Notes under the pieces: model-generated | Databases searched by the model: none | Seen by the model: only the letters and a program-made list of their open reading frames with translations | What the model was told of the DNA's origin: nothing | Part shown: piece after piece, positions 1,051 to 16,630 of the stretch | Layout: every line of letters starts with the position of its first letter | How positions within the stretch are numbered: position 1 is the stretch's first letter | Assembly (NCBI GenBank): GCA_900323505.1 | Contig: OOIN01000006.1 | Location: 186,001-250,000, forward strand | Source: Ustilago trichophora | Lineage: Eukaryota > Basidiomycota > Ustilaginomycetes > Ustilaginales > Ustilaginaceae | Length of the DNA stretch: 64,000 nucleotides | Direction of reading: 5' to 3' | Position numbers and translations under genes: made by a program

Positions 1051-1464
1051 TTAGGGCCACGCAGTGACTTGGAAGATGTCAGAAGGGATTTCGGTGCCAT
1101 CGTCGTTGAGTGTCAGGACAATCTGATAGCTTCCTAGATCTTGATCTTTATTCAAATTGTCGATGACAAAGCTGACTCGTCCGCATTCGCCACCGCAGGA
1201 GTTGGCAGCTGGAGCATTTACAGCAACAACTCGTTTAGGAACAAGAAACTCCAAAGCTGTGTTTGGAGCCGGTTGAAACGTCACATTTACCGTTCCTGTT
1301 TCATAGAGGACATTATTCCACTCAACTTCAACAGGGTCGCCAATATGCCACACTGATTCTTTGGTAGGAGAAGTGAAGTAGGGAGGATATTCCGGGTTGA
1401 TCTTAGCAAAGCTTAAAACCGCCAGGAGGAGAGCGGCGAAGACAGTGTTTAGGAGACGGACCAT
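1051..1464 (-). CDS. Small secreted Kre9/Knh1-like protein, array copy 1
   Basis: The product is a predicted 137-residue extracellular protein. Residues 1-20 form a signal peptide (MVRLLNTVFAALLLAVLSFA). The rest is one beta-sandwich resembling the Kre9/Knh1 N-terminal family: a YFTSPT strand with VWHIGD near 30-43, an EVEWNN strand at 47-51, and GSYQIVLTL at 111-119 followed by SDIFQV. Cys90 and Cys94 (C-x3-C, then GR) are the array's cysteine pair. The start at 1464 is chosen because the signal peptide begins there and all paralogs start MVR/MAR/MV. The closest relative is copy 2, which shares INPE(Y/F)PPYFT. A TATA/TTGAAAGCT promoter lies about 90 bases upstream. Function is unknown; a cell-wall or host-interaction role is inferred. 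Confidence 0.82.
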   Translation of the reverse strand: MVRLLNTVFAALLLAVLSFAKINPEYPPYFTSPTKESVWHIGDPVEVEWNNVLYETGTVNVTFQPAPNTALEFLVPKRVVAVNAPAANSCGGECGRVSFVIDNLNKDQDLGSYQIVLTLNDDGTEIPSDIFQVTAWP

Positions 1465-1548
1465 CTTTGCTGGAGTGCTGGAGTGAGAAAAAACTGAAAA
1501 GTGGTGAGATGTCGAAAGGTAGACGATCAAGAACCCAAAAAGTCGAAG

Positions 1549-1571
1549 TTTAAATAGATGACAGCTTTCAA
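1549..1571 (-). promoter_or_regulatory. Core promoter of array copy 1
   Basis: On the minus strand TTGAAAGCT (1571-1563) is followed by GTCAT and a TATA-like CTATTTAAA (1557-1549), about 85 bases before the ATG at 1464. The short insertion between the two blocks is shared in kind with copy 7. Confidence 0.5.
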
Positions 1572-2037
1572 GAAGTCGTTGGCGTGGCAAAGGAGTCCTG
1601 TGACGGATGCACTCATATGCGCAGTAACTTGCCTTTGTCGCGGACGGACGGGTCTCTTTACAACAATTGCGCACGACATTGCTCTCAACACATCTTGGGC
1701 AGGTTAAATGGTGGGGCGCCGAGAGGGTCACCGCACGAGGGCCACAATACAAATTTGCGCCCGTATGAACTCACAATCCAGATACGTCAGAGTCGAGACC
1801 GTGTACTGTACTCTGTCCAATGTCTCAGTTCCACAAGTATTCACAAGCACATCACGGCAGCATAACGCAACTCATTGAACAGTCAATTTCATACCAAGGC
1901 TGGAAGAGTGCCTTCTGCCATGTCATAGAGAGATGTGTAAGAGAAGATCGAGACCTGATCTGACATGATGAAACCGACCGAGCTCCCTATGGACGCTCTC
2001 CACCGATGATCTTGGTGCAAATGACCTTTAGATAGGC

Positions 2038-2433
2038 TCACTTCGTGATGGCAAATTTGTCAGAAAGGAATCGAATGTTGTCGTCGGGGAGGTACATCAC
2101 GACTTGATAGGTGCCCGCCGGGTTATCCCCAATATTGACAGTCCAAGCGAAGCGACCACAACCACCCCAGCAAGAGTCAGCGGCGGCTGCACCTTCGGTG
2201 ATGGTAATTGACCTAACAGTCTGAGCACTTGATGTGCCTTCAGCCCCCTGGAGAATGAGATTGACACTTCCCGAAAGAACATTATGCCATTCAATGTTGA
2301 CATAGTCTCCAGGGCCCCACGTCATACCACTGGTTGGATAAGTGAAGTAGGGTGGGAATTCTGGATTGATCATAGCGACGCTCACAGCGGCGAGGAGGAA
2401 GGCAGTGGAGAGGGAGGTGAGGAGGCCGAGCAT
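2038..2433 (-). CDS. Small secreted Kre9/Knh1-like protein, array copy 2
   Basis: The product is 131 residues. A signal peptide occupies about 1-20 (MLGLLTSLSTAFLLAAVSVA). Residues 21-131 form the array's single beta-sandwich: INPEFPPYFTYPTSG, TWGPGD at 38-43, NIEWHN, then GRFAWTV, GTYQVVMYL at 108-115 and SDKFAI at the end. The cysteines are Cys88 and Cys92, the C-x3-C variant shared only with copy 1, so the two are probably the most recent pair at this end. The start at 2433 is supported by the signal peptide and by a TATA box about 75 bases upstream. The protein is expected to be secreted; its function is unknown. Confidence 0.82.
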   Translation of the reverse strand: MLGLLTSLSTAFLLAAVSVAMINPEFPPYFTYPTSGMTWGPGDYVNIEWHNVLSGSVNLILQGAEGTSSAQTVRSITITEGAAAADSCWGGCGRFAWTVNIGDNPAGTYQVVMYLPDDNIRFLSDKFAITK

Positions 2434-2509
2434 CTTGATAAGAACAGGAGTGTTCAGAACAATGGTAGAACATCGAGGGGTGGATGACAAAGAAGCCGGA
2501 CGGAGGTGC

Positions 2510-2523
2510 TATATAGCTTTCAA
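2510..2523 (-). promoter_or_regulatory. Core promoter of array copy 2
   Basis: Minus-strand TTGAAAGCTATATA is a fused TTGAAAGCT block and TATA box, 75-90 bases before the ATG at 2433. It is one of the best matches to the array consensus. Confidence 0.6.
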
Positions 2524-3024
2524 GACAATGCCGACTTAGCTGAAGACCCTCTAGAGAAACGCTTGACAAGCACAGCCACCTAGCTTCCCGGTGGGACAGT
2601 GGGGCTTTCTCGTCCCGCTTGCAATGACTGTTACTACCTCCACCACACCAATTGCAGGCGCGCCTGCACGGTCGGGGTTTCTGGCTCAAATGAAGTCAGG
2701 GGCTCAAACGCAGTCAGGGGTCAGGCAATGGTTGCTCGAGGTTGGGGACACACTACCTCATTGCTAGCCCCAAACGTTCTCAAGAGACTCAAGGCAGCGA
2801 AGCCATATCAGCACGAGTCCCACGTCGATAGCGAAAGCACGTGACGCGATTTGTCTGATCATAGCGCAGAGGAGAAGAACAGGAGCTCGAGGATTGATAC
2901 GAGAAAGTGATAAGTCATGATCTGGAGTTGACCTGGGATTGCAGAAGGATCTCGACGATCGCGATGCGAAGCAATCAAGGCCGTGGCTTGAGGGTTAAGA
3001 CGGCGATATCGCGCAAGGAGACAT

Positions 3025-3444
3025 TCATTCACCCTTAGGAACGATCGTGAATTCGTCAGAAAAGAATTTCTGGGTGGTTCCTGAAGCACGACCTTAGGAT
3101 CCTGGAGGGTCGTATGCATCTTCAGGGACCCACCAGAAAGTCGCGCAAGGTTCTTTCAGCTTGCCTCGGTTGCAGGCCTTCATTTCTGGGTCAAACCTGC
3201 CTGAATAACTAGGAGCAATCCAAGTGGGCGTAGCATCCGGAGTCTGAGTAGAGACTAGTCCAATGTCGACACGAGACTCGGGGCCATTGCGCCAATCAAT
3301 GGTAACTTCATTGTCGATATGCCATACATCCCACTTACGAGGATGAGTGAAGTAGAGTTTGGGAGGGGAGGTGGTGGGACCAGCTGCAACGTACATGACG
3401 GCCACGGGAATGATGCTGAAGAGGATGTTGAGGACGCGGACCAT
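3025..3444 (-). pseudogene. Array copy 3, truncated by an in-frame stop
   Basis: The open part (3094-3444) encodes 116 residues: a signal peptide at about 1-21, LYFTHPRKWDVWHIDNE, TIDWRNGPES, the pair Cys91/Cys100 (C-x8-C) and FWWVPEDAYDPPGS. Every intact paralog continues with Tyr and two more strands ending in SDxF(T/S)(I/L). Here the codon after PPGS is TAA (3096-3094), where the others have Tyr. Downstream in the same frame the text FFSDEFTIVPKGE is still readable, ending at a TGA at 3025. The stop therefore removes a conserved C-terminus that once existed. A slight length difference after the stop suggests small indels as well. It is either a decaying copy, a short secreted form, or a sequencing error. 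Confidence 0.7.
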
Positions 3445-3548
3445 CTTGACGTCTCTTTGGTATGACTTGGTGAGGACAAAGAAAAGCAGAAGAAGAAAGG
3501 GCTGTAGGATACGGAAAAGCAGACCACCGAGGACAAGAATGTACGACC

Positions 3549-3563
3549 TTATGTAGCTTTGTT
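3549..3563 (-). promoter_or_regulatory. Core promoter of array copy 3
   Basis: Minus-strand AACAAAGCTACATAAG is a degenerate form of the TTGAAAGCT/TATA block, about 105 bases before the ATG at 3444. Its divergence fits the damaged state of the gene. Confidence 0.4.
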
Positions 3564-3706
3564 GGCCACAAAAGAAGCAGAGGACAAAAGTCCATCGGGT
3601 GGGACTGGATGCACTTCCTCGCACTCACAGTTGGATCGCAGAAGGGGGTTGGCACACTTCTAGAGTCTCAGCTAGCAAAAGGAAAACGTTTATCGCCACA
3701 CAATAA

Positions 3707-3802
3707 CATGATGGCGGTACAAGCTGTCCTTCAACGTGTGGGACCCTTCCCACAACGACATGATGGCGGTGCAAGCTGTCCTTCAAGATGTGGGACCCTT
3801 CC
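3707..3802. repeat. Tandem 52-base duplication in the copy 3/4 spacer
   Basis: A 44-base segment at 3707-3750 recurs at 3759-3802 with about three differences, giving a 52-base period. Each copy contains CATGATGGCGG, AAGCTGTCCTTCAA and GTGGGACCCTTCC. The first copy ends in a perfect inverted repeat, GTGGGA-CCCT-TCCCAC (3738-3753). Confidence 0.85.
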
Positions 3803-4066
3803 TACCTCTGGTGGTGGAACGCACAGCCCTCGGTACCACCGGTTGCGTGCATGACTTTCATATCACGGAAAAATAGAGTAAAGGGTTTCATTATTTCGTA
3901 GCTCGGGGTCGAGTTGAAGAGACACAGGAGAGAAAAGACTTGGAGAGCTCAGAAGAGCTTAAGGTCTGATCTACTTGAAAGGAAGAATCACAGGGAAGTC
4001 ATGGAATGATAGCCACTTGTCGATACTTGAATCACTGAACACCGAATAAGAAAGCGTTGTGCAAGA

Positions 4067-4501
4067 CTAGACGACGATGGTGAATGATTTGGATGTGGCC
4101 ACATGGCCGTGTTCGAGGACCAGAACAGCTTCGTATAGTCCAGTCTCGAGAGACTTGGTCTGAGTCACGGGATCCTTGTCATCAACGACCCAAGTGAAGC
4201 GTGCGCAAGGTTCGTCCGCTGGGCCCCGATCGCAGGGGGGATCACCTTCAACGAACCTGCCTTTAGTACCTGTCGTGACTACCATAGGTGGCACAACTCG
4301 AGCAATAGGCGTGTTCGCAACCGGACGAACCACGATGCCTACATTGCCGACGGCAGCATTCCTCCACTCAAACAAGAGGCTGTCACCAACATGCCAAGTG
4401 CCACCGGTTGGGAGAGAGAATTTGACATCGTCAGGCTCGCAAGAGACCCTCAAAGAGGCAATGAGGACAACGGTGGAAAGGATGGTGACGAGGCGGGCCA
4501 T
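4067..4501 (-). CDS. Small secreted Kre9/Knh1-like protein, array copy 4
   Basis: The product is 144 residues with an N-terminal hydrophobic signal peptide (about 1-20, MARLVTILSTVVLIASLRVS). The fold markers are KFSLPTGGTWHVGD at 27-40, LLFEWRNAAVGNV at 42-54, the pair Cys90/Cys99 (C-x8-C) in a CDRGPADEPCARFTW segment, then GLYEAVLVLE and SFTIVV at the C-terminus. A seven-residue insertion before GLYE (about 110-118) lengthens the last loop relative to copies 7 and 8. The start at 4501 matches the paralogs, and a TATA box lies about 70 bases upstream. It is predicted secreted; no enzymatic motif is present. Confidence 0.82.
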   Translation of the reverse strand: MARLVTILSTVVLIASLRVSCEPDDVKFSLPTGGTWHVGDSLLFEWRNAAVGNVGIVVRPVANTPIARVVPPMVVTTGTKGRFVEGDPPCDRGPADEPCARFTWVVDDKDPVTQTKSLETGLYEAVLVLEHGHVATSKSFTIVV

Positions 4502-4571
4502 CGTACAAAGTGGAAGTGAGTCGGATAAGAGTTGGAGTGCCAAAAGGCAAACTTCGAGGGACCAGAGGAGA

Positions 4572-4586
4572 TTATAAAGCTTTTGG
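4572..4586 (-). promoter_or_regulatory. Core promoter of array copy 4
   Basis: Minus-strand CCAAAAGCTTTATAA keeps the AAAGCT-TATA arrangement of the array consensus, 70-85 bases before the ATG at 4501. Confidence 0.45.
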
Positions 4587-5085
4587 CCTGCATCGAAAAA
4601 GGAGTTGACGGCGGGGCAAAGACTCTTGATAATTCTCTTCACACACGCCACTTTGTCGTGGACCGGCCTCCCGTTTCACTCTCTACACCTCAGTGGGCTT
4701 GTGGGTTGGGGCCACCAAATGAAGTCCACACTACAGCGTTTTGTAGACCCACGACTCGTGATCATGCTTCGCACGTCATTGTCGCACACTTTTGCCCACA
4801 AGGAGAACGTTTTGGCCGCACAACGCTGCTGCATGGACACCCACTTTACATTGGGGCTAGAACGACCTGAACCACTTCATTCGATCATCGCGCGGAGGAT
4901 AGAAGCAAATGAAACATATTCGAAAGAAGGTTCGAGGCTGACGCGAGAGAAGAGGAAGGCTGAAAAGAGTCATGACAGTAACGATGCAATGCGATAAAGG
5001 TTGAGAAACAATGCGAGACTGAGTGTTTACCGCCTGTCGACGATTCAAGATTGCAAGCATTGCCCAGGATGATATTAGGATAGAT

Positions 5086-5535
5086 TTACGAGTCGGCTTC
5101 GATGGTGAAAACGTCAGAGTAGATCTTTTCGTTGGACCCTTCGACAACTAGTTCGGCTCGGTAGCTTCCAGTCGGGAAAGGCTTTTTGGGGTCACCGGTA
5201 TAAACTTCCCAAGTGCAGCGCCCACAAGGTGGATTCTCCGGGCCTCCATCACATTGGCCGTTTTCGTTTTTGATCCTGGCGACAAGTTTCTTAGCGACGA
5301 TGACCGGAGGGACGTTAGGTCCATTCGGGGCAGGAACAACCGAGAGCTGGACATTTCCGACAGGAGCGTTACGCCAGCTAAAGTAAACTTTGGCACCGTC
5401 GTGCCATTTGGCCGTGCTCGTAGGGTAAGAAAAGTAGATGCCCTCGGGGTTCTGGTCGGAGCCAGCGGGGAGAGCAGCGACGCTCATAGCGGCTACAATC
5501 GCTGTGGAAAAGAGCATGTTGAAGAAACGGGCCAT
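5086..5535 (-). CDS. Small secreted Kre9/Knh1-like protein, array copy 5
   Basis: The product is 149 residues with a signal peptide at about 1-21 (MARFFNMLFSTAIVAAMSVA). It then has IYFSYPTSTAKWHDG, VYFSWRNAPVGNVQL at 50-64, and the pair Cys95/Cys104 (C-x8-C) within CDGGPENPPCGR. An additional Cys107 is unique to this copy, so one cysteine may be unpaired or allow dimerisation. The C-terminal strands are GSYRAELVVEG and SDVFTI. The closest relative is copy 6 (WRNAP, VVPA, GPEN). The start at 5535 fits the paralogs, and a TATA/TTGAAAGCT promoter lies about 100 bases upstream. Confidence 0.82.
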   Translation of the reverse strand: MARFFNMLFSTAIVAAMSVAALPAGSDQNPEGIYFSYPTSTAKWHDGAKVYFSWRNAPVGNVQLSVVPAPNGPNVPPVIVAKKLVARIKNENGQCDGGPENPPCGRCTWEVYTGDPKKPFPTGSYRAELVVEGSNEKIYSDVFTIEADS

Positions 5536-5634
5536 CTTGTTGATAGGAATGAGAGAATTGAAGACAAGATGGGATGACAAAGATACTGTGCTATACAGTA
5601 AACATTGAAGGTGAAGAATCCAAACGGAGGAGAC

Positions 5635-5648
5635 TTTATAGCTTTCAA
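5635..5648 (-). promoter_or_regulatory. Core promoter of array copy 5
   Basis: Minus-strand TTGAAAGCTATAAA combines the TTGAAAGCT block with a TATA box about 100 bases before the ATG at 5535. Confidence 0.6.
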
Positions 5649-5875
5649 TCCCCATCACAAAAGGCGTCGTAGGATCCCTCAGCGGGACACGCTTCACACG
5701 CACAGCCACTGGGCTCCACCGTACTTCAAGGATCCCCACCGTTGGCTCTTGCACGGCCTCTCAGCTTTACCTTGGAGGACTGGTGGGGTGAGTACGCAAC
5801 ACGCTGAAGAAAGGCAGGATAGACGGCCAAGGTACCAGCCCAAAAAACGGACTTGCACTCCAACCGAAGAACTGG

Positions 5876-5929
5876 GCGAGGCAGCGAGCACTTCTGTCAC
5901 AGACCTGGACGAGGCAGCGAGCACTTCTG
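5876..5929. repeat. 33-base tandem repeat in the copy 5/6 spacer
   Basis: CGAGGCAGCGAGCACTTCTG occurs at about 5877-5896 and again at about 5910-5929, a 33-base period. No open frame supports it as coding. Confidence 0.75.
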
Positions 5930-6252
5930 ACATCGTTCTACACTACTAGCCTTAAGCACACATGAAAGGCTTGCCGCAACGCAGCAGCACCACAAACCAA
6001 AACTATCTGAAGCAATTCATTCAATCATAAGGGTGGAAAGAGATAAAATGCGAGAGAAAAAACTTGATAAGGGAGGCGACATGAAGAAGATTCGAGAGAT
6101 GCTACGAGAGAGCATGAAAGGTTGTGTTCGTCAAAGAACGCGTGACAGCGTCAGGAAAGTAACGATATGAAGCGACGTTATACTGGTCCGCGGTTAAGTG
6201 CTAGGCATTTACCAACTCGTTGAGGTATTTGAGCATTCGGCGGCACGCAAGC

Positions 6253-6867
6253 TTAAGCAGTGACGTCGCTGTTAACGTAACCCTGCTTGGTACCGTAAAG
6301 TCTGCTCTGGCGATGGCGGTCGTCATCGTCATCGTCATCATCGTCGTCGTCGTCGTCATCACCGTCGTTGTCGTCATCGTCGTCTCCGCCATATTCATTG
6401 GTATTCTTCTTGATGGTAAACTCGTCAGAGTAGGAAGGCCCAATGGAAGGCGCGTGGTTGAGCTGCAGGATTGCCTGGTACTTTCCAGTAGGCAGGAAAT
6501 CAGGAACAGTCCAGACGGCACGTCCGCACGCTTGGTTCTCCGGGCCACGATCGCATTGGCAGTTGCTGTTTCCATTTCTGGCGTCAACACTTTCGAAGGC
6601 TTCAACCGGATCGAAGTGGGGTCCATCCTTGGCAGGCACTACATAGATTTTCACAGTTCCTTCGGGAGCGTTGCGCCAATTGAAGACGAATTGGGCACCC
6701 GATTCACCTACAGAACTTGCTTTGGGTGAAGAGAAGTAGGGGAGCGTGGCGGGGTCGTAGTTGCCAGGTCCCTGGTCGTTGGAATCGCCAGAGTAGTAGG
6801 GCAGAGCAGAGACGCTCATAGCGACCACCAGAACGGCGACAGAGAGGGTGTTGATGATGCGAACCAT
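6253..6867 (-). CDS. Secreted Kre9/Knh1-like protein with Asp-rich tail, array copy 6
   Basis: The product is 204 residues, the longest in the array. It has a signal peptide at about 1-21, LPYFSSPKASSVGESG, FVFNWRNAPEGTVKIYVVPA at 61-79, and a cysteine segment with Cys103, Cys105 and Cys114 (Cys105/Cys114 keep the C-x8-C spacing). It continues with GKYQAILQL at 128-136 and SDEFTIKK at 147-154. Unlike the others it continues for 50 residues: a tract with 20 Asp in residues 162-183, including 14 in a row, then RHRQSRLYG and a short end. The Asp codons mix GAC and GAT. The tail could bind divalent cations or basic surfaces; this is inference. The start at 6867 is the signal-peptide Met. Confidence 0.82.
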   Translation of the reverse strand: MVRIINTLSVAVLVVAMSVSALPYYSGDSNDQGPGNYDPATLPYFSSPKASSVGESGAQFVFNWRNAPEGTVKIYVVPAKDGPHFDPVEAFESVDARNGNSNCQCDRGPENQACGRAVWTVPDFLPTGKYQAILQLNHAPSIGPSYSDEFTIKKNTNEYGGDDDDDNDGDDDDDDDDDDDDDDRHRQSRLYGTKQGYVNSDVTA

Positions 6868-6978
6868 CTTGATAAGAGTAAGAGTGTACGAGTGTATGAA
6901 TGTGAGAGAGTAAGAGAATTGTTGAGTGAAAAGGCTTTGATGTCGAAAAGTAGACGAGTAAGAGCTGGAAAAGTTAAG

Positions 6979-6994
6979 TTTATATAGCTTTCAA
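6979..6994 (-). promoter_or_regulatory. Core promoter of array copy 6
   Basis: Minus-strand TTGAAAGCTATATAAA is the fullest match to the array consensus, 112-127 bases before the ATG at 6867. Confidence 0.65.
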
Positions 6995-7584
6995 CCTCGC
7001 TCGCCACCGTTTCCATAGCCACAGTGAAAGAGCTTGGTTGCTCTGGCAAAAGCTCGTCAGGTGGGGACGAGGATGGGAACGAGGGGGAACCACTTCATTA
7101 GCACAGCCACTGATCGTTGTTGAGGACTGATGTGTCTCCCCACCACTTACTGAGCAAAGCACGTCATGGTATCCCGCTCAGGCTCGATCCGGTGGGAAAG
7201 TGCCACACTTGGTAACATCATCTGTGGGCCATCTGGCACGGTCGAGACAACAGGATGGGACGGCCCACACCAACAATGTGTGACTGCAAATAAGGTCAGG
7301 GGCGCGATATTGGAAACCTGAAAGGAGGTGGGTTGCCTAGGTGCCTGTCCCACACTGCTTCAGAAACAACGAGAAGCTTGTCAAAGAGCGAGCAATGCAG
7401 TACCATAGTCTCACGTCGAGGCCAAAGAAAGTGAAGTATTTCATTCAATCACAACGGAAAGGAGCAAAAGCAGACATCGATTTTTTATTCGCAAAGAGAG
7501 ATTTGATTGAACTCGAGTGCTACTTGTTCGTGGACGCTTTCTTACCGTGGCCATTGCATGATACAGAATGAGGCTCGTGTGACC

Positions 7585-8004
7585 TTATGAAACGAGGCTG
7601 AACGCATCAGACACGTAAATGGATTGCCCATCATTGAAGTCGAAAAGGGCTTGATAGCTTCCACTTGGAGTATCTTGGTCAAAGATCCAATTGTAGCGTG
7701 CGCAAGGTTCGTGCTTGTCGCCTGGGTCGCAGTACCCATCAGTTTTTCCAGTGAACCTGCTTTTGGCGTTTTTAGTAACGGTTATATCCTTAGCCACAGG
7801 TCCTGTCGGAGCGGAGATGAGATAGAGCGCTACCTCGCCATTGGGAGGATTGCGCCACTCGAAGAAGACATGATCCTTACGATGCCAGACAGACTTGCTA
7901 TTTGGCGAGGAGATGTAGAAAGGATGATCAGGCTTGTCGGAGTCAGCAACGGTCAGAACGGCCAGGAGAACGGCCGCGCAGAGGGTGGCAAAGAGGGAAA
8001 CCAT
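7585..8004 (-). CDS. Small secreted Kre9/Knh1-like protein, array copy 7
   Basis: The product is 139 residues with a signal peptide at 1-20 (MVSLFATLCAAVLLAVLTVA). The fold markers are FYISSPNSKSVWHRKDHVFFEWRN (in parts, 29-52), the pair Cys92/Cys101 (C-x8-C) in YCDPGDKHEPCARYNW, GSYQALFDF at 115-123 and SDAFSL at the end. It is the close partner of copy 8: both share DHVF(F/Y)EWRN, KSRF, DGYCD and EPCARY, and their 3' flanks also align. This suggests a recent duplication. It is predicted secreted with no catalytic motif. Confidence 0.82.
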   Translation of the reverse strand: MVSLFATLCAAVLLAVLTVADSDKPDHPFYISSPNSKSVWHRKDHVFFEWRNPPNGEVALYLISAPTGPVAKDITVTKNAKSRFTGKTDGYCDPGDKHEPCARYNWIFDQDTPSGSYQALFDFNDGQSIYVSDAFSLVS

Positions 8005-8071
8005 CTTGATGAGAGCAAAAGGTGTCGAAAGAAACCATGTCTGAGTTGTTGAAGAGGTAGACAATCAAGCG

Positions 8072-8101
8072 CTTAAAAAGATGAGTGGCTACAGCTTTCA
8101 A
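8072..8101 (-). promoter_or_regulatory. Core promoter of array copy 7
   Basis: Minus-strand TTGAAAGCTGTAG is followed, after CCACTCATC, by the TATA-like TTTTTAAG. As in copy 1, an insertion ending in CATC separates the TTGAAAGCT block from the A/T-rich box. Confidence 0.45.
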
Positions 8102-8615
8102 CCGCGGTCAGGACAGAGTCGTCAGCGTAGCAAAGACGCAGCTAGTGAGAACGTTTGATACGTATAGCGACTGAGCTCCATTGTGCACAGCCTCCTCTCA
8201 ACAGGTTGTATAAAGTGCAGCTTGAGCGGGACGATTCAGTGGGTAGACAGTGGGATCGTGGGACCATCTCTTGCGTCCCACTTTACGTGATAGCCAGCAG
8301 GGTCGGGGCAACAGGACGTGGCATCGGTCCACGCCAACGATTCACACCCAGATGAAGTTAATGGGCGCAATAGCGCAGACCTGAGAGGATATCTAGTCGC
8401 CTGTCTCACACTGGGCTTGTCAAAGTGCGGCAAAACCAGCATGACTTCACAACGAGGCCAAAGGAAAGCAAAACATTTGATTCGATTGCAATGGAGACGA
8501 GCAAGAGACAAGGAATCTTGATTCGCAAGGAAAGACCAGACAAAAAGGAATGCCACACATTTGTGGACGTTTCGCAAGGGAAGTGTGGCAAGGGGAGAGG
8601 CTTATGTGGCCTTGA

Positions 8616-9011
8616 TCAATTGATCAAGAATTCGTCAGAATGGATAATTTCGTCTCCTTTCTGGTTTAGCACGGCAAAATAGCTTCCAGATTCAATATCG
8701 GCGGGAACGACCCAGCTGTAGCGTGCGCAAGGTTCCTTGTTGACACCTCCGTCGCAGTATCCATCACGTCTGGAGACGAACCTGCTTTTGATGTTTGTGG
8801 CGACGCTTATACCGTAGCTTGGCCAGTCCACCGGATAGAGGTAGATATCACCTTGACCACGAGGAGCATTGCGCCATTCATAGAAGACATGATCACCTGA
8901 TTTCCATGAAGCTCCCGAAGCCGGGGAGGAGAAGTAAGGGTCAGACTGGTCCGCGACCGTCAGAGTGGCCAGGAAAACAGTGGTGCTGAGAATGGAAAAG
9001 AGGCAAACCAT
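8616..9011 (-). CDS. Small secreted Kre9/Knh1-like protein, array copy 8
   Basis: The product is 131 residues with a signal peptide at about 1-20 (MVCLFSILSTTVFLATLTVA). It continues with PYFSSPASGASWKSGDHVFYEWRN (in parts, 25-48), the pair Cys86/Cys95 (C-x8-C) in YCDGGVNKEPCARYSW, GSYFAVLNQKGDE and SDEFLI. It is the most compact intact copy and the nearest relative of copy 7. The start at 9011 is set by the signal peptide; a longer in-frame upstream extension contains a short repeated SDTLS text that comes from 5' untranslated sequence. Confidence 0.82.
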   Translation of the reverse strand: MVCLFSILSTTVFLATLTVADQSDPYFSSPASGASWKSGDHVFYEWRNAPRGQGDIYLYPVDWPSYGISVATNIKSRFVSRRDGYCDGGVNKEPCARYSWVVPADIESGSYFAVLNQKGDEIIHSDEFLIN

Positions 9012-9114
9012 ATCGATGAGAGCAAAAGTGTCGAGAGAAAGGGTGTCTGATATGTCGACAGAAAGGGTGTCTGAGATGTCGAAAGGACAGACGGTCAAGT
9101 ATGCGAAAGGGGCT

Positions 9115-9130
9115 CTTATATGGCCTTCAA
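9115..9130 (-). promoter_or_regulatory. Core promoter of array copy 8
   Basis: Minus-strand TTGAAGGCCATATAAG keeps the consensus with two changes in the upstream block, about 105 bases before the ATG at 9011. Confidence 0.5.
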
Positions 9131-9480
9131 CTGCAGAGTCGTCAGCGTAGCAAAGACCCACCCGGTGGGGAACCTGGACGCCCGACAACTGTACAACGTC
9201 GTTGGAAGAGCAGGCCTTTCCCCCCACGGGCTGTGCAAACGCAGCGCGATGCAGTGGGGTAGGCAGTGGAACTGTGGGTACACTTTACATCCTCGTCATA
9301 TTATCTTCAACGCTGTGACATAGCGAATTGGAAAACTGCTGAATTGAACATGTCAAAGAAGAGAAAAACAAAAGTAACCATGCTGTACTGTAGGAAGAAA
9401 TGATGCTGAATGCGAATTATGTCTATGCAAAGGATGCCTTGAAAGCGAAAAAAAAAACTACCTCTTTACTACTGAACACC

Positions 9481-9972
9481 TTATTCCTGCAACCTCTCGA
9501 CGGCGTGTCTCTTTCCCTTCTTTCCACTTTTCTTGATCACTACGGTATCGGTGTAACCCACATGTTGAGGCTGAGCCAAGCTCGTCACCACCACCTCGTA
9601 CTTGCCTTCCTTGACGTTGGAAGGTACTGTCCAATCGAATCGACCGCACTTGGCACCGATTCCCATGTCGTTGCACTTCTTATCTTTCCAGCCGTGAATG
9701 CTTCCGACTTTGTCGGTGATGGTGTAGGTCTTCAGGCCCGTAGTGCCTTCCTCGGGCACGAGCTGGATTTTGAGGCCTCCAGCGGGTGCGTTGAGCCAAT
9801 TGACGTAAACCGACTGGTTAGGGTGCCAGATTACTTGGCATTTCCAGTGATCACACGATGGATAGTTGACATATAGGATCTTGCCGCGTGGATCGTCATT
9901 GGACGCTTGGGCAAAGACGGTAGCAGACAAGGCCAGAACGGTGGTGGCGAGGTAGGTGAGAAGTCGGACCAT
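9481..9972 (-). CDS. Secreted Kre9/Knh1-like protein, divergent array copy 9
   Basis: The product is 163 residues and the most divergent copy. A signal peptide covers about 1-21 (MVRLLTYLATTVLALSATVF). Extra cysteines Cys40 and Cys45 lie in the first loop, before the standard pair Cys100/Cys109 (C-x8-C, then GRFDWTVP). The fold markers VYVNWLNAPAGGLKIQLVPE (in parts, 55-74) and GKYEVVVT at 123-130 are clear. The C-terminus is basic (KKSGKKGKRHAVERLQE) and contains a Lys-Arg that a Kex2-type protease could cut. No TTGAAAGCT/TATA block was found upstream. Because it sits at the array edge with a different promoter, it may be the ancestral or a differently regulated member. Confidence 0.8.
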   Translation of the reverse strand: MVRLLTYLATTVLALSATVFAQASNDDPRGKILYVNYPSCDHWKCQVIWHPNQSVYVNWLNAPAGGLKIQLVPEEGTTGLKTYTITDKVGSIHGWKDKKCNDMGIGAKCGRFDWTVPSNVKEGKYEVVVTSLAQPQHVGYTDTVVIKKSGKKGKRHAVERLQE

Positions 9973-11185: not shown

Positions 11186-11977
11186 ATGTCGCACAATCAC
11201 TCGCACTCTGGTCCCTGTGGACACGATCATCATCATGATGATGATTCTCATGTCAAGCCCGATGAGGTATGTATCTCCTCGCAACCTCTTCTTTCAGCCA
11301 CGTTTGTTGCATCACCACTAATCTCTCTCTATCTACTGTATGTGTACATTTTTGACTCTCATATGGGCGAACGGTAGGGAGATCAAGATCTTCTCTATTC
11401 CAGTATCGATCGAGACCGCATCCTCACCCTTAACGAGACCGTCCCCGGCAGTGGCGCTTCGATCTTCAAACCATGGGATCGAAGACTCGACCCGCTCCCC
11501 GAACTCGTATCCGATGCCGATGATCAACTAATCATCCATATCCCCTTCACCTCTTCCGTCAAATTATCAACTCTCCTCTTCCGTCCTTCTCCCAATCCTC
11601 CCTTCACACCTGAATCCATAAAACTCTACAAAAACCTCCCAGAATCATCCATATCCTTCGATGACCTCCCCTCCCTTACCCCCAACAAAATCACCACCAC
11701 CCTCAACAGCATCCCCACAATCTCCGACACTTCCCAAATCATCTCCTTCCCCCTAGCCCCCGTCAAATGGTCAAACACAGACTCGGTCACAATCTTCATA
11801 GAATCTAGTCTCGGAGGAGACCATTCAGGAATCCAATTCTTGGGTTTCAAAGGAAAATCTTCAGGTTACACACGTCAGGCTCCCCAAAACATCGTCTACG
11901 AAAGCGCTCCTCAGCTCAAAGATCATTCCAAAGTTGGCACCGATAGCCTCTCTTCCGCTCACGGATTCGGTCATTAA
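11186..11977 (+). CDS. PITH-domain protein, two exons
   Basis: The exons are 11186-11266 and 11378-11977. The 111-base intron starts GTATGT and ends GGTAG, and the joined frame gives 226 residues. Residues 1-27 are rich in His and Asp (MSHNHSHSGPCGHDHHHDDD), then GDQDLLYSSIDRDRILTLNE opens a PITH domain filling about 30-200. Typical markers are the ASIFKPWDRR segment, a strand run LIIHIPFTSSVKLSTLLFRP, and GIQFLGFKG near the end. PITH (proteasome-interacting thioredoxin) domains occur in TXNL1-like and PITHD1-like proteins. No thioredoxin CxxC domain is attached here, so it is the stand-alone PITHD1 type. It converges on HMG1 with only about 190 bases between the stops. Confidence 0.88.
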
Positions 11978-12169: not shown

Positions 12170-15100
12170 TCACTGATTCTGCGAAAGCGAAGCAGCCCGT
12201 CCAGTGCTGTCGGACGCAGGAATGCTCAAATTGGTCATCGACATGGTCCGTGTACCCGTTGGCGAGCCACGATTCGACTGTCCCACCGGTGGGGCAACGA
12301 GCGGTGTCATCGAGGCAGCAAAGTGCTTGGGTGTCTCTGGTCTCGGCAAAGGTGTCATGGTACCTGGTGTCGAAGGCACGGAGCGGTTGTGCTTCATGTG
12401 CGCCTGGATCAAGTGTCCTGCGCAGAGAGCACCCATAAGGGACAGCTCACCAGCCATGACTGAAGCTGCAATGATACGCGCCAGTCTCTGCGCGTTGGCA
12501 CCTGGCGTAGACGAGTGTGCGCCGGCGATTCCCATCATCTCGAGCATCGATCGCTGTGGTGGCAGCACAGTTCCTCCACCAACGGTACCGACTTCAATGC
12601 TGGGCATCGAGACAGTGATCAGCAGATCCTGATCGTCGTTGATGGCTTCCATGAGCGTAATACAGTTGGACGATTCGACGTTCTGAGCTGGATCCTGACC
12701 CGTAGCAAGGTAGATGGCAGTCAAAATGTTGGCAGCGTGGGCGTTGAATCCACCGACGGATCCAGCCATGGCCGAACCGATCAGGTTCTTCTTGTTGTTG
12801 AGGTTGACCAAATCACGAACGTTGCACTTGAGCACCGACTTGACCACATTACCAGGCACGACAGCCTCAGCGACAACGCTCTTACCACGTCCCTCGATCC
12901 AGTTGATGGCGGCGGGCTTCTTATCCGTGCAGTAGTTGCCCGAAAGCGACAAGACCTTCATCTCGGGGAAGTAGTCCTCGGTCATCATGCCCAGCGCCTT
13001 CTCGACACCCTTGGAAATCATGTTCATGCCCATAGCATCACCGGTCGAAGTAGCAAATCGGACGTAGAGCGTTCGGCCAGCAAGAACACAACGCAGCGAC
13101 GACAGTCGTGCAAAGCGAGAAGTCGAGTCGAAAGCAGCCTTGATGATGGAAGCACCTTCCTGCGAGTCGATCCATCGCTTGGCCTTGGCTGCCTGCACAA
13201 CGCTGGGGAATTCGAGAGCGGGTCCACGAGTCATGGCATCCTGCGTCAACACTGTCGTCACTCCACCACCAGCGTTGAGAGCCTTGCATCCTCGCGAGGT
13301 CGAAGCAACCAGAGTACCTTCAGTAGTGGCCATGGGAATAGGCATGATCTGTCCGTCAATGTTGAGTGGACCTGCGATACCAACCGGGATGGGCATGTAA
13401 CCGACCACGTTCTCGCAGCAAGCACCCATGACCTTTCCGTAGTCGTAATCGCGGTGAGGCAGGAGTGAGCTCTCGAGCGTCTTGGTCGCCGAAGCACGCG
13501 AGACGAGCGCTCGTCGCACGCGAACAGCGCGTTCGTGATCCTGAAGAACCTTCTCCAAGGCGTAGGCGGCGATCTTTCCGTTCTGGCTGAGAGTGATGAT
13601 CTCCTCATCGGTCAAGAAGAAGACACCAGCACCGCCGGCATAGATGTCGATAAGCTCCTCGAGAGGTCGAATGACCGCCTCACCATCGGGTCCAACATAG
13701 GTAGCAGCCTGGAGACGAATCTGCTGTCCACGCTGTTCGGGAGCAGCGACGGCACCGGTACCGTCGGAGCTGGGTGCAACATCCGACTTCTTGATGGTCT
13801 CCATAGCATCGGGCTTGACAGCCGCAGCAGGAACAGCGTTGACACCAGCGCCCTGAGCCGAAGCATCCTTGGACGCCAGCTTGTCGTTCTCCCGTGCGAG
13901 CTTGGAGAGAGGAGACGAAGCGTGAGCGGCCGACATCTGAGCGAGCTTGCTGTGGTAATCCGAGATCTCATCTGCGCTCTTGCCACGCACCTGGACGGTC
14001 GGCCTGCCGTTCTCGCCACGAGAGCTCCATCTTCTGCGGTTGCGTTCGCTGTGCTCCTCGATGGCCTTGGCTTCGCTGTCGAGGTGAGCGCCAATAAATC
14101 GAGCTGCGGCGTAGGCGGCGGCGCCAGCCGCGTTACCTTCCGACAGAGCGGCATTGCCGGTAGCGATACCCTTGAGCAGGTAGGCATTCAGGAAGATGCT
14201 GATACCAAGAGCCAGAGACATCCACTTGCTGATGACGGGGTCACCGACGATGATGGTCCATCCGCTCATGAGGCTGTCAAGAACGGCAAGCGACGAGCTG
14301 CCTCGGCCGACGGGAACAGGTCGCACTCCGGCAGAAGTGATCTGTGCATAGACACCAGAAGCGTTGAGGGCGGCACTGGCGAGAGCGCTGCGCGATGCAG
14401 AGACCGACTCGTTGGCCTCGAGCAGAATGAGGATGGTAGGCTCCGAGATGCGAGCAACGAGGTCAATGTCGGCAGGCTGCGACTGCGAGAGCTGAGCAAG
14501 GAGAGGAGCGATGGCAGAGGAAGCAGCGGGACCAAAGATGGGTGACTGCTCAGCGACAATCTGGTAAGGCGAGGGCTCGTAGGTGGCGTGGTGACGGGTG
14601 ATGGCCGACTGCCTGGTCAGGGTCGAGATCAGGTTGAACGAGTGCAAGACGAGGAACGAGGTGATGAGGAGGAGCTTGAGACGTCCGAGAGGGTTTTCGG
14701 ACTTGCGGCGCTTCTCGGAAGGTGCCGAGCCAAAGAGAGTCTGGCAAACCTTCTTCCAAAGAGGACGGCTGGAAGGCGTAGGGCTTGAGTCGCGTGAAGT
14801 CGAGCTGTCGGAAGTTGGGCTGGCAGGGGCCGAGTCCGAGTCTAAGCTGAGCTCGGCGCTGAGCTTGGGCTTGCGAAGGCCGCGCTTAACCTTGATCCGG
14901 TGCACCTCGACCATGACGGTGAGGATCGAGACGTAGAATGCAAAGAGGAAGATGCAGTCGAAAAGCAGGATGAGAGCGGCAAGTTGGCAAAACTCGCGAA
15001 GACCGCTGACACCGCTGGTGGCGCCAACGGCCATGACAGCGATCTCGATGAGGTAGTCGCGGATGATGGGGACGCCGACACGGTTGACAGCCGAAACAAC

Positions 15101-16630
15101 GATCTCGTGCGCGGGCATGGGAGTCGGCTCGGCCCAGCGCAGGCTGTCCTCGCTCTTGAGTCGCTCGGTCAAGGCACGGACGAAAGATTCCTCGCGCGAC
15201 ATGGCAGCAGCGCCGTTGGTAGCCGCAGCTGGGGATTTGCCAAGAGTACCGATCTCGGGCTTAGCAGCGTGGTCAAGGTTGCTGAGGATGAGCTCGGAGC
15301 GCTCCTTGTTGCTGAGTACGTTGGCCGAAGGAGTAATCTCGGGGTGAGTGAAGATGGCACGCGTTAGCAGGTAAGGTTTTTCGAATCCGACGAGGATGAC
15401 GAGGAAGGGCAGCGCTTCGGAGAGGCAGATGGGGTCGACCGTGACACCGAGGAGGTAGGCGAAGGTGATGGCCAGGAGGAAAGCAAAGATGGACGACATG
15501 AGGACGGAAGCGCCGAGCCAAAAGTTGCTGCCAAACTTGCGCATCGAGAGGAAGAGGTTGACAAAGGTGCCGTGCATCAGAATGTAGGCCGAGAGCATGA
15601 CAAAGATGTCGGCGGAATCGGCTTTCTTGAGCAGAGCCCAGAAACGAATGACGAGTGCCTTGACGGCGTAAGCCATCCAACGGATACGCTGAATCTCCTC
15701 GTTGTTGCCCATGGCACCGCGCTTTCCCTTGAGGTTGTTGGGTGCGTACGGGTTGAACTCGCCATCCGGGACAAGAGGAATGACACGAAGACCGTCGTAA
15801 AGCTCGTTGAGCTCTGCAGCGGAAGCTTTGGCGACGGTGGCAGGACGGGGTACCGAGTTGACGGCGTTGGAGAGCGACTTGGAAAGGAGCGATGGATCGA
15901 CGACGTTGCCGAGGAATTCGTTGCGAAGGACAGCTTCGTCGGCAGCGGTGCTGGCAGAGCTGGACGCAGCAGCCGAAGTGTCAGCAAAGGTCTTTGCGAA
16001 AACGTAGGCCGAGTGCTGCGAGTCGTCGTCCTTGATCAAGGTAGCAGCAGAATTGCGACCGACGAGATTGTTGACAAGGTTATGTGAGAGGGCAGGGAGA
16101 ATGGCGTCCTGAATCTGAGAGGCCATGTAGGATTCCCTTGCGCTGGTGAGGAGGACAGGCTCGACGAAGAAGGTGTGTGACGAAGAGTCGACTTGGGTAG
16201 CTGCGACCTCGGCACCGTTGTGAGAAAGCTGGCTGAGAGGCTGCCAGATGTTGGCAGCACCGGCTTTTCGAACGTAGACGGTGTCGGCATCGTTGTGAAC
16301 AGAGGTGAGAGTGGCTGCAGTGTTTGGTGCGGGGGCGGCGTCGTTGTTACCGGCACCTGCCCACTTGAAGAGACCGGACGAGGAACTGGAAGCGAGGCTG
16401 GTAGCCTCGATGGAGATGGGCTCGAAAAAGTTGGAGTGGGTGACAGCATGGAGAAGCTGAAAGTAGGCGAGGGTGACAATGATGAAGATGGTGACGATGA
16501 CCTCGATGGGGTTCTGGGAAGCAGCGCGAGCCAAGCGTCTGAGCATGACCTTGGGCAGGGAGAGGGGCTGAGCGGTGATGCCGATGGAAGAGGAACCGCT
16601 GGTATACGAGGAAGCCGAAGCGGACGACAT
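12170..16630 (-). CDS. HMG1: 3-hydroxy-3-methylglutaryl-CoA reductase
   Basis: This is the rate-limiting mevalonate/ergosterol pathway enzyme of the ER membrane, 1486 residues and without introns. An N-terminal membrane segment lies near 38-60, and a sterol-sensing-type group of helices spans about 325-430 with further segments to about 600. The linker to about 1000 is low in complexity. The class I catalytic domain follows (about 1010-1415). Its motifs are [17 protein letters not shown] with the catalytic Glu (about 1074), [11 protein letters not shown] (about 1197), a [11 protein letters not shown] segment with the catalytic Lys (about 1232), [12 protein letters not shown] with the catalytic Asp (about 1308) and HMKHNRS with the catalytic His (about 1409). 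A 70-residue Ser/Thr/Pro-rich tail follows. It is larger than yeast Hmg1 (about 1050 residues), mainly through long linkers. Confidence 0.97.

What the first reader, a model, noticed from the sequence alone, without database searches (positions are those of the whole stretch)
1051..9972. Nine-copy tandem array of small secreted Kre9/Knh1-fold proteins
Seen: nine consecutive minus-strand genes whose start codons are 961-1332 bases apart. All encode a signal peptide plus one domain with the order (Y/F)-(F/I)-x-x-P, W-x-x-G-D, (E/N)-W-R-N-x-P, Cys pair, G-S-Y, S-D-x-F-(T/S)-I. Known: PF10342-type domains occur in cell-wall proteins such as Kre9/Knh1 and in Ser/Thr-rich GPI proteins, usually with long Ser/Thr tails. 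Smut fungi often keep effector genes in tandem clusters. Inferred: these stand-alone domains without Ser/Thr or GPI tails form a lineage-specific secreted family, possibly host-interaction effectors. This is the best candidate for an undescribed system in the window.
Basis: partly seen in the sequence, partly recalled or inferred. Interest (0 to 1): 0.9.

Follow-up and report, generated by a model that had tools for sequence, protein, structure and literature searches.

The report
Tandem family of small secreted smut proteins
A smut fungus carries a row of ten related genes for small, apparently secreted proteins built on one immunoglobulin-like fold; one is well conserved among smuts while others change and disappear quickly, as proteins at the boundary with a host plant often do, but no function has been shown.

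Summary
In detail: nine minus-strand genes, 961-1332 bases apart, encode one family with secretion leaders (leave-one-out profile scores 70-133 bits; best of 300 shuffles per copy at most 8.9). A tenth copy lies just outside the window. Copy 3 ends at an in-frame stop.

The window belongs to an assembly labelled Ustilago trichophora that holds two diverged copies of the region. The partner locus has four intact copies plus a decayed relic: birth and death.

The copies are not alike. c9 is conserved (dN/dS 0.05 between partners), and the 26 outside proteins found are all of its type, some from yeasts with no known plant host. c2, c6 and c10 evolve faster (0.28-0.40; flanking median 0.09, maximum 0.28), and seven of ten copies share a promoter core that c9 lacks.

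The Kre9/KNH link is real but weak: 0 of 9 window copies pass the PF10342 cut-off; copy ten and its partner do. Two models show an Ig-like sandwich. Ser/Thr and GPI tails are absent; a tailed GPI-type paralogue exists elsewhere in the genome.

Best reading: tail-less derivatives of a surface-protein domain working outside the cell, probably at the plant interface. Host function is inferred. New member of a known kind.

The parts
9481..9972 (-). c9: conserved-type protein, 163 aa, two Cys pairs, Lys-rich tail; the array gene nearest to the HMG-CoA reductase gene
   Evidence: orthologue on C7 92.6% identical, dN/dS 0.045
8616..9011 (-). c8: array copy, 131 aa; a decayed c7/c8-type relic stands at the matching place on C7
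7585..8004 (-). c7: array copy, 139 aa; structure model mean pLDDT 87; no intact orthologue on C7
6253..6867 (-). c6: array copy, 204 aa, Asp-rich tail; orthologue on C7
5086..5535 (-). c5: array copy, 149 aa; absent from C7
4067..4501 (-). c4: array copy, 144 aa; absent from C7
3094..3444 (-). c3: broken array copy, frame ends at an in-frame TAA after 116 aa; absent from C7
2038..2433 (-). c2: array copy, 131 aa; orthologue on C7; best PF10342 score of the nine (22.0 bits, cut-off 24.6)
1051..1464 (-). c1: array copy, 137 aa, paralogue of c2; absent from C7
1549..1568 (-). promoter core before c1 (AAAGCT, then TTTAAA)
2510..2520 (-). promoter core before c2 (AAAGCTATATA)
3547..3560 (-). promoter core before c3 (AAAGCTACATAA)
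4572..4583 (-). promoter core before c4 (AAAGCTTTATAA)
5635..5645 (-). promoter core before c5 (AAAGCTATAAA)
6980..6991 (-). promoter core before c6 (AAAGCTATATAA)
8093..8098 (-). AAAGCT before c7, without a TATA-like run by the pattern used
12170..16630 (-). HMG-CoA reductase gene (named by recall of its conserved catalytic region, not by a family search), a syntenic neighbour on both subgenomes; one small conserved frame (11378-11974, +) lies between it and c9

Best explanation
The locus is a birth-and-death array of small exported proteins, each one Ig-like beta-sandwich domain related to the fungal KNH/Ser-Thr-rich GPI-protein domain (PF10342) but without the Ser/Thr stalk and GPI anchor. 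c9 is the conserved member, found in many smuts and related yeasts, and probably has a general job at the fungal surface. The other copies (c1-c8, c10) are divergent duplicates, seven of them with AAAGCT and most of those with a TATA-like run after it, which change quickly and are lost between close relatives. Most likely they act soluble in the wall space or the plant apoplast, by binding a glycan or protein there, as diversified effector-like proteins. Shown: array, homology, copy-number difference, loss of at least one lineage in the partner region, different evolutionary rates, promoter difference. Inferred: secretion (leaders by eye), fold (models only), apoplastic action, ligand, any effect on a plant.
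For: Family and copies. Fold: two all-beta models (mean pLDDT 81 and 87) whose nearest solved structures are Ig-like sandwiches. PF10342: c10 26.9 and c10h 25.6 bits, over the 24.6 cut-off; 18 of 31 members of alignment A2 match it at E<=1. Link to tailed GPI proteins: c9 matches GPI-type proteins on C1 and C2 at E 1.6e-14 (sequences; profile comparison probability 98). Conservation of c9 versus the rest: 26 of 26 proteins not encoded by the window are c9-type; c7 finds only itself. Rates: dN/dS 0.045 for c9, 0.39, 0.40 and 0.28 for c6, c2 and c10, flanking median 0.086 over 23 frames. Birth and death: six genes absent from C7, relic of a c7/c8-type gene there, tree placing c5 and c1 outside the c6/c6h and c2/c2h pairs. 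Promoter: AAGCTA(C/T)ATA occurs six times in 184 kb, and six are the sites before c2, c3, c6, c2h, c6h and c10h.
Confidence: 0.55

Rival explanations
1. Wall or surface proteins with no host role: the domain helps build or coat the fungal wall, and the array only adds dose or stage-specific variants.
For: Kre9/Knh1-type proteins are counted among wall-related families (passage of PMC7105643); the GPI-type paralogue looks like an ordinary surface protein; c9 is kept in yeasts with no known host (host status partly recalled).
Against: The 13 array proteins counted lack the stalk and anchor, and c2, c6 and c10 evolve several times faster than c9 and the GPI pair (dN/dS 0.045 and 0.035).
Confidence: 0.3
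2. Diversified look-alikes of an elicitor: plants sense a 22-residue segment (SNP22) at the start of the PF10342 domain of SGP1. Array copies may keep that segment's frame while differing at most of its required residues, so they may escape recognition or compete for the receptor.
For: SNP22 facts: PMC8079714 (abstract and passages), including that 18 of 50 tested genes of the family triggered cell death, at least one each from U. maydis and S. reilianum. Counted back from the conserved Trp without gaps, the 14 array copies have 2-3 of the 8 required residues, while another KNH protein of this genome (L005) has 6 of 8.
Against: The register was set by me from residue numbers, not from an alignment with SGP1, whose sequence I did not have, and the Trp matches by construction. 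The GPI paralogue and the five outside c9-type proteins checked also have 2-3 of 8, so this is not special to the fast copies. No receptor data.
Confidence: 0.08
3. Decaying duplicates under relaxed constraint, with no present function.
For: c3 is broken; six genes are missing from C7 and a relic remains.
Against: Nine of ten C6 copies and four C7 copies keep open frames and the Cys pair although the 11 paralogue pairs computed differ by dS 0.76-2.03; pairwise dN/dS stays below 1; promoter cores are kept.
Confidence: 0.07

Closest known systems
[quoted passage not shown]
   Same: Ig-like domain behind a leader; c10 and c10h pass the curated cut-off; shared Trp and, in 10 of 14 array copies, Gly of the first strands
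   Different: The nine window copies are below cut-off; no Ser/Thr stalk or GPI tail; an invariant Cys pair of their own
Kre9/Knh1 proper (yeast beta-1,6-glucan assembly, PF05390; role recalled)
   Same: Shares only the N-terminal Ig-like domain type
   Different: No PF05390 match listed; single short domain
Clustered small secreted effector genes of smuts (for example the Pleiades cluster, PMC8224859, seen as a search listing and abstract start)
   Same: Tandem, small, with leaders, fast-evolving, smut lineage
   Different: No infection-induced expression or virulence role tested here; one member is conserved in yeasts with no known host
Conserved hypothetical Ustilago-specific protein (P0029, Melanopsichium) and uncharacterised proteins of Sporisorium, Kalmanozyma, Testicularia and Pseudozyma
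   Same: c9-type relatives
   Different: No relatives of c1-c8 seen in those species by this search, which is limited to shared five-residue words

Membership tests
PF10342 (Kre9_KNH) | profile score at or above the curated cut-off of 24.6 bits | tested here: not met
   0 of 9 window copies reach it (best 22.0); outside the window c10 (26.9) and c10h (25.6) do, the other 3 C7 copies do not
PF10342 (Kre9_KNH) | Ig-like beta-sandwich | tested here: met
   models of c9 and c7 only (2 of 9), pLDDT 81 and 87, nearest folds Ig-like; predicted, not solved
Kre9/Knh1 glucan-assembly proteins | C-terminal PF05390 region | tested here: not met
   no such match listed among 9 proteins at E<=10 or 31 at E<=1
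[quoted passage not shown]
   13 array proteins examined (c3 left out) have 3-11 Ser+Thr in the last 60 residues and no hydrophobic tail by eye; the C1/C2 paralogues have 20-21 and such a tail
SGP1-type elicitor | the eight SNP22 residues required for activity (PMC8079714, passages) | tested here: inconclusive
   2-3 of 8 in 14 of 14 array copies, the anchoring Trp included; register set by residue spacing only
Smut clustered effectors | tandem cluster of small secreted proteins | tested here: met
   ten copies in 10.6 kb; leaders judged by eye, no signal-peptide program available
Smut clustered effectors | induced in the plant and contributing to infection | not testable with these tools
   no expression or infection data
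NIS1-like effectors | NIS1 fold | tested here: inconclusive

The most novel reading that the evidence does not exclude
A smut has turned the domain of a plant-recognised surface protein into a diversifying set of soluble, tail-less variants under their own promoter, which work in the apoplast as receptor decoys or glycan shields; the two genomes in this apparently hybrid smut assembly carry different repertoires of them.
Probability: 0.08. Interest if true: 0.75.

Novelty: new member of a known kind. Interest (0 to 1): 0.42.

Why it matters
It gives a clean natural comparison: one conserved and many fast-evolving versions of the same small fold side by side, with two diverged copies of the locus in one genome assembly differing in copy number (ten, one of them broken, against four plus a relic). 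If the fast copies act on plants, it would show how a cell-surface domain, one type of which plants can recognise, is recycled into effectors; if they do not, it shows how far wall-type proteins can diversify without host pressure. No paper naming or describing this family came up in the listings, and the six locus tags searched are in no held paper.

Tried and rejected
Sequence search of the Protein Data Bank with the family profiles gave nothing convincing (best E 1, 0.018 to an antibody light chain). Fold search gave general Ig-like sandwiches; no solved KNH domain is among the rows shown. Genome DNA searches with 20-kb pieces were insensitive (one long C7 match, none), although fetched C7 DNA proved collinear over the window; I therefore give no weight to the empty result. 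Gain of the six extra genes on C6 was considered and judged less likely than loss on C7: the 11 array paralogue pairs computed have dS 0.76-2.03, above the flanking median of 0.38 (range 0.22-0.67); the tree puts c1 and c5 outside the orthologue pairs; and C7 keeps a relic. Against this: c9/c9h has dS 0.91 and c6/c6h 0.67, so dS in the array is not clock-like and c7/c8 (0.76) need not be older than the split; c2/c2h support is only 92/71; c1, c3, c4 and c5 are long branches; the tree used 11 of the 26 outside relatives and c3 up to its stop. In one search the flanking median leaves out 4 of 27 frames with dN/dS over 0.35 as probably non-coding, and of overlapping frames keeps the one with lowest dN/dS, which favours low values. 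The stop-to-stop frames, which include leader DNA upstream of the start codons, give c2 0.47, c6 0.34, c10 0.39 and c9 0.14; I quote the coding-sequence values. Literature searches that could have shown the two-genome nature of the assembly listed no paper describing it; PMC8951962 (passages) marks other doubled assemblies in this family as diploid or contaminated. In PMC8159752 (passages) 'UTRI' stands for U. tritici, not this genome.
Full report
What is there. Nine uninterrupted ORFs lie on the minus strand at the stated coordinates, with starts 961-1332 bases apart. They align over the whole domain with eight invariant columns, among them the Trp and Asn of the W-x-N segment and a Cys pair. 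With each copy left out in turn, a profile of the other eight scores it at 69.6-132.5 bits, while the best of 300 shuffles of the same copy scores 2.8-8.9. A profile of the nine, run over stop-to-stop frames of the window and nine other stretches, gave 14 strong hits (E 1.5e-54 to 8.6e-25) and then nothing better than 0.0084; five of the 14 were not in the profile: a tenth copy, c10, at C6:185347-185784, and four copies on contig C7. A genome-wide search with c7 found the same 14 places (ten on C6, four on C7). Copy c3 ends at an in-frame TAA; whether this is a real lesion or an assembly error cannot be told here.

Where it is from. Two of the proteins are held in public collections as UTRI_03818_B and UTRI_03818 of Ustilago trichophora, on contigs whose lengths (1,507,999 and 1,539,439) equal C6 and C7. 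The assembly has 38.8 Mb in 45 contigs, against 20.7 Mb for two published U. trichophora assemblies (abstract of PMC4966473; table passage of PMC8951962). The window and 20 kb to its left are collinear with C7 in inverted order; of 22 flanking pieces of at least 150 bases, 20 are 76-89% identical and two 66 and 72%. Synonymous divergence of 23 flanking frames has median 0.38. Other loci appear paired too: C1/C2 and C3/C5, C1/C2 again, C21/C27, and by score and place C3/C4 and C19/C24, with one of five matches unpaired. This looks like two species' genomes in one assembly; hybrid, dikaryon or mixed culture cannot be told apart here.

Copy number and history. C7 has four intact copies, orthologues of c9, c6, c2 and c10, in the same order. 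The DNA that carries c1, c3-c5 and c7-c8 has no aligned counterpart of that length there. Between c9h and c6h, C7 keeps a 140-base stretch 75% identical to the start of c8 and a 184-base overlapping one 71% identical to the start of c7 (the first also); its three-frame translation shows a c7/c8-type leader and domain start split between frames and then a stop: a relic, so at least this lineage was lost there. The tree places c5 outside c6/c6h (support 99/97 for the pair) and c1 outside c2/c2h (92/71), again pointing to duplication before the split and loss on C7; c1, c3, c4 and c5 are long branches, so this is only moderately secure. Paralogue dS of 0.76-2.03 in the 11 array pairs computed agrees for most pairs, but c9/c9h itself has 0.91, so these values are not a clock.

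Two classes. c9 is 92.6% identical to its C7 partner with dN/dS 0.045. c6, c2 and c10 are 61.7, 71.5 and 80.7% identical with dN/dS 0.39, 0.40 and 0.28, against a flanking median of 0.086 with a maximum of 0.28 among the 23 frames kept. A profile search of 5.8 billion proteins returned 29 proteins: three encoded by the window and 26 others, all 26 of c9 type by the PSC-x4-C segment read in their sequences. One of them, P0002, differs from c9h at only three places by eye and may come from the same species. Named ones come from Kalmanozyma brasiliensis, three Sporisorium species, Testicularia cyperi, Pseudozyma hubeiensis, Pseudozyma flocculosa and Melanopsichium pennsylvanicum; 23 of the 26 were aligned with c9 and are 48-92% identical to it. 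c7 alone found only itself, and an alignment without c9 found only this genome's proteins and one weak outsider at E 0.016 (where only the 7,996 candidates sharing most words were scored). These searches need shared five-residue words, so fast copies in other smuts could be missed. Upstream, AAAGCT stands 82-124 bases before the start codon in 7 of 10 C6 copies (c1-c7) and 2 of 4 C7 copies, where 0.024 per 60 bases is expected; AAGCTA(C/T)ATA occurs six times on both strands of 184 kb, the number of sites seen before c2, c3, c6, c2h, c6h and c10h; c8 and c10 have a related TATA segment; c7 has AAAGCT but no TATA-like run by my pattern; c9 and c9h have neither within 350 bases.

How it may work. 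A leader plus a compact sandwich with a conserved Cys pair and no anchor predicts a soluble exported protein. The related SGP1 of Ustilaginoidea virens is a surface protein whose 22-residue segment SNP22, near its N-terminus, is sensed by plants; residues I25, Y26, I34, G37, Y40, T41, V42 and W44 matter for cell death, and at least one family protein each of U. maydis and S. reilianum triggers cell death (PMC8079714, abstract and passages). Counted back from the conserved Trp, which matches by construction, 10 of 14 array copies also have G37 and all 14 have 2-3 of the 8 residues, whereas the KNH protein on C21 has 6 of 8. I take an apoplastic binding role as most likely, a wall role as the main rival, and receptor decoy as an open, testable minority view. 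No expression or host data support any of these.

Verdict. A real, well-defined tandem family, correctly seen and in part correctly read. Its domain type and its kind of gene cluster are known; the family itself, the split between a conserved member and a fast array, and the copy-number difference between the two genome copies did not appear as described in the search listings made.

Noticed in passing
whole window versus G000:C7:1283800-1364961: The assembly holds two collinear, diverged copies of this region (flanking dS median 0.38); other loci look paired on C1/C2, C3/C4, C3/C5, C19/C24 and C21/C27, so it looks like two species' genomes in one 38.8-Mb assembly labelled U. trichophora (two published ones are 20.7 Mb).
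   Followed up: partly
window 9481-9972 against L017 3069-3560: c9 has unusually high synonymous divergence (dS 0.91; flanking range 0.22-0.67) although the protein is 93% identical; no explanation found.
   Followed up: no
window 3699-3802: A 52-base unit is tandemly duplicated (90% identical) upstream of the broken copy c3.
   Followed up: no
window 6307-6399: The Asp-rich tail of c6 is encoded by a GAT/GAC repeat; 30 of the 36 genome matches are to this simple-repeat DNA, and the tail differs in length on C7.
   Followed up: no
L031 2974-3561 and L032 1687-2271: A 195-aa KNH-type protein with a leader and no GPI tail, 85% identical between C21 and C27; on C21 it keeps 6 of 8 SNP22-type residues, a candidate plant-recognised protein of this smut.
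   Followed up: partly
window 11378-11974 (+): A small frame conserved between the two genome copies (90% identical, dN/dS 0.11) lies between c9 and the HMG-CoA reductase gene; a His-rich start stands just before it. Not identified.
   Followed up: no
window 18954-59407: Much of the rest of the window is ordinary housekeeping: CLU/eIF3-135 protein, Vps36, amidohydrolase, MMR_HSR1/TGS GTPase, aldo-keto reductase, MBOAT acyltransferase, NPR3 (7 of the 9 long ORFs scanned have Pfam matches; one search lists 15 ORFs of 300 aa or more).
   Followed up: partly
P0023: The Pseudozyma hubeiensis c9-type protein is named 'ATP-dependent RNA helicase DBP5' in its source, evidently a wrong label.
   Followed up: no
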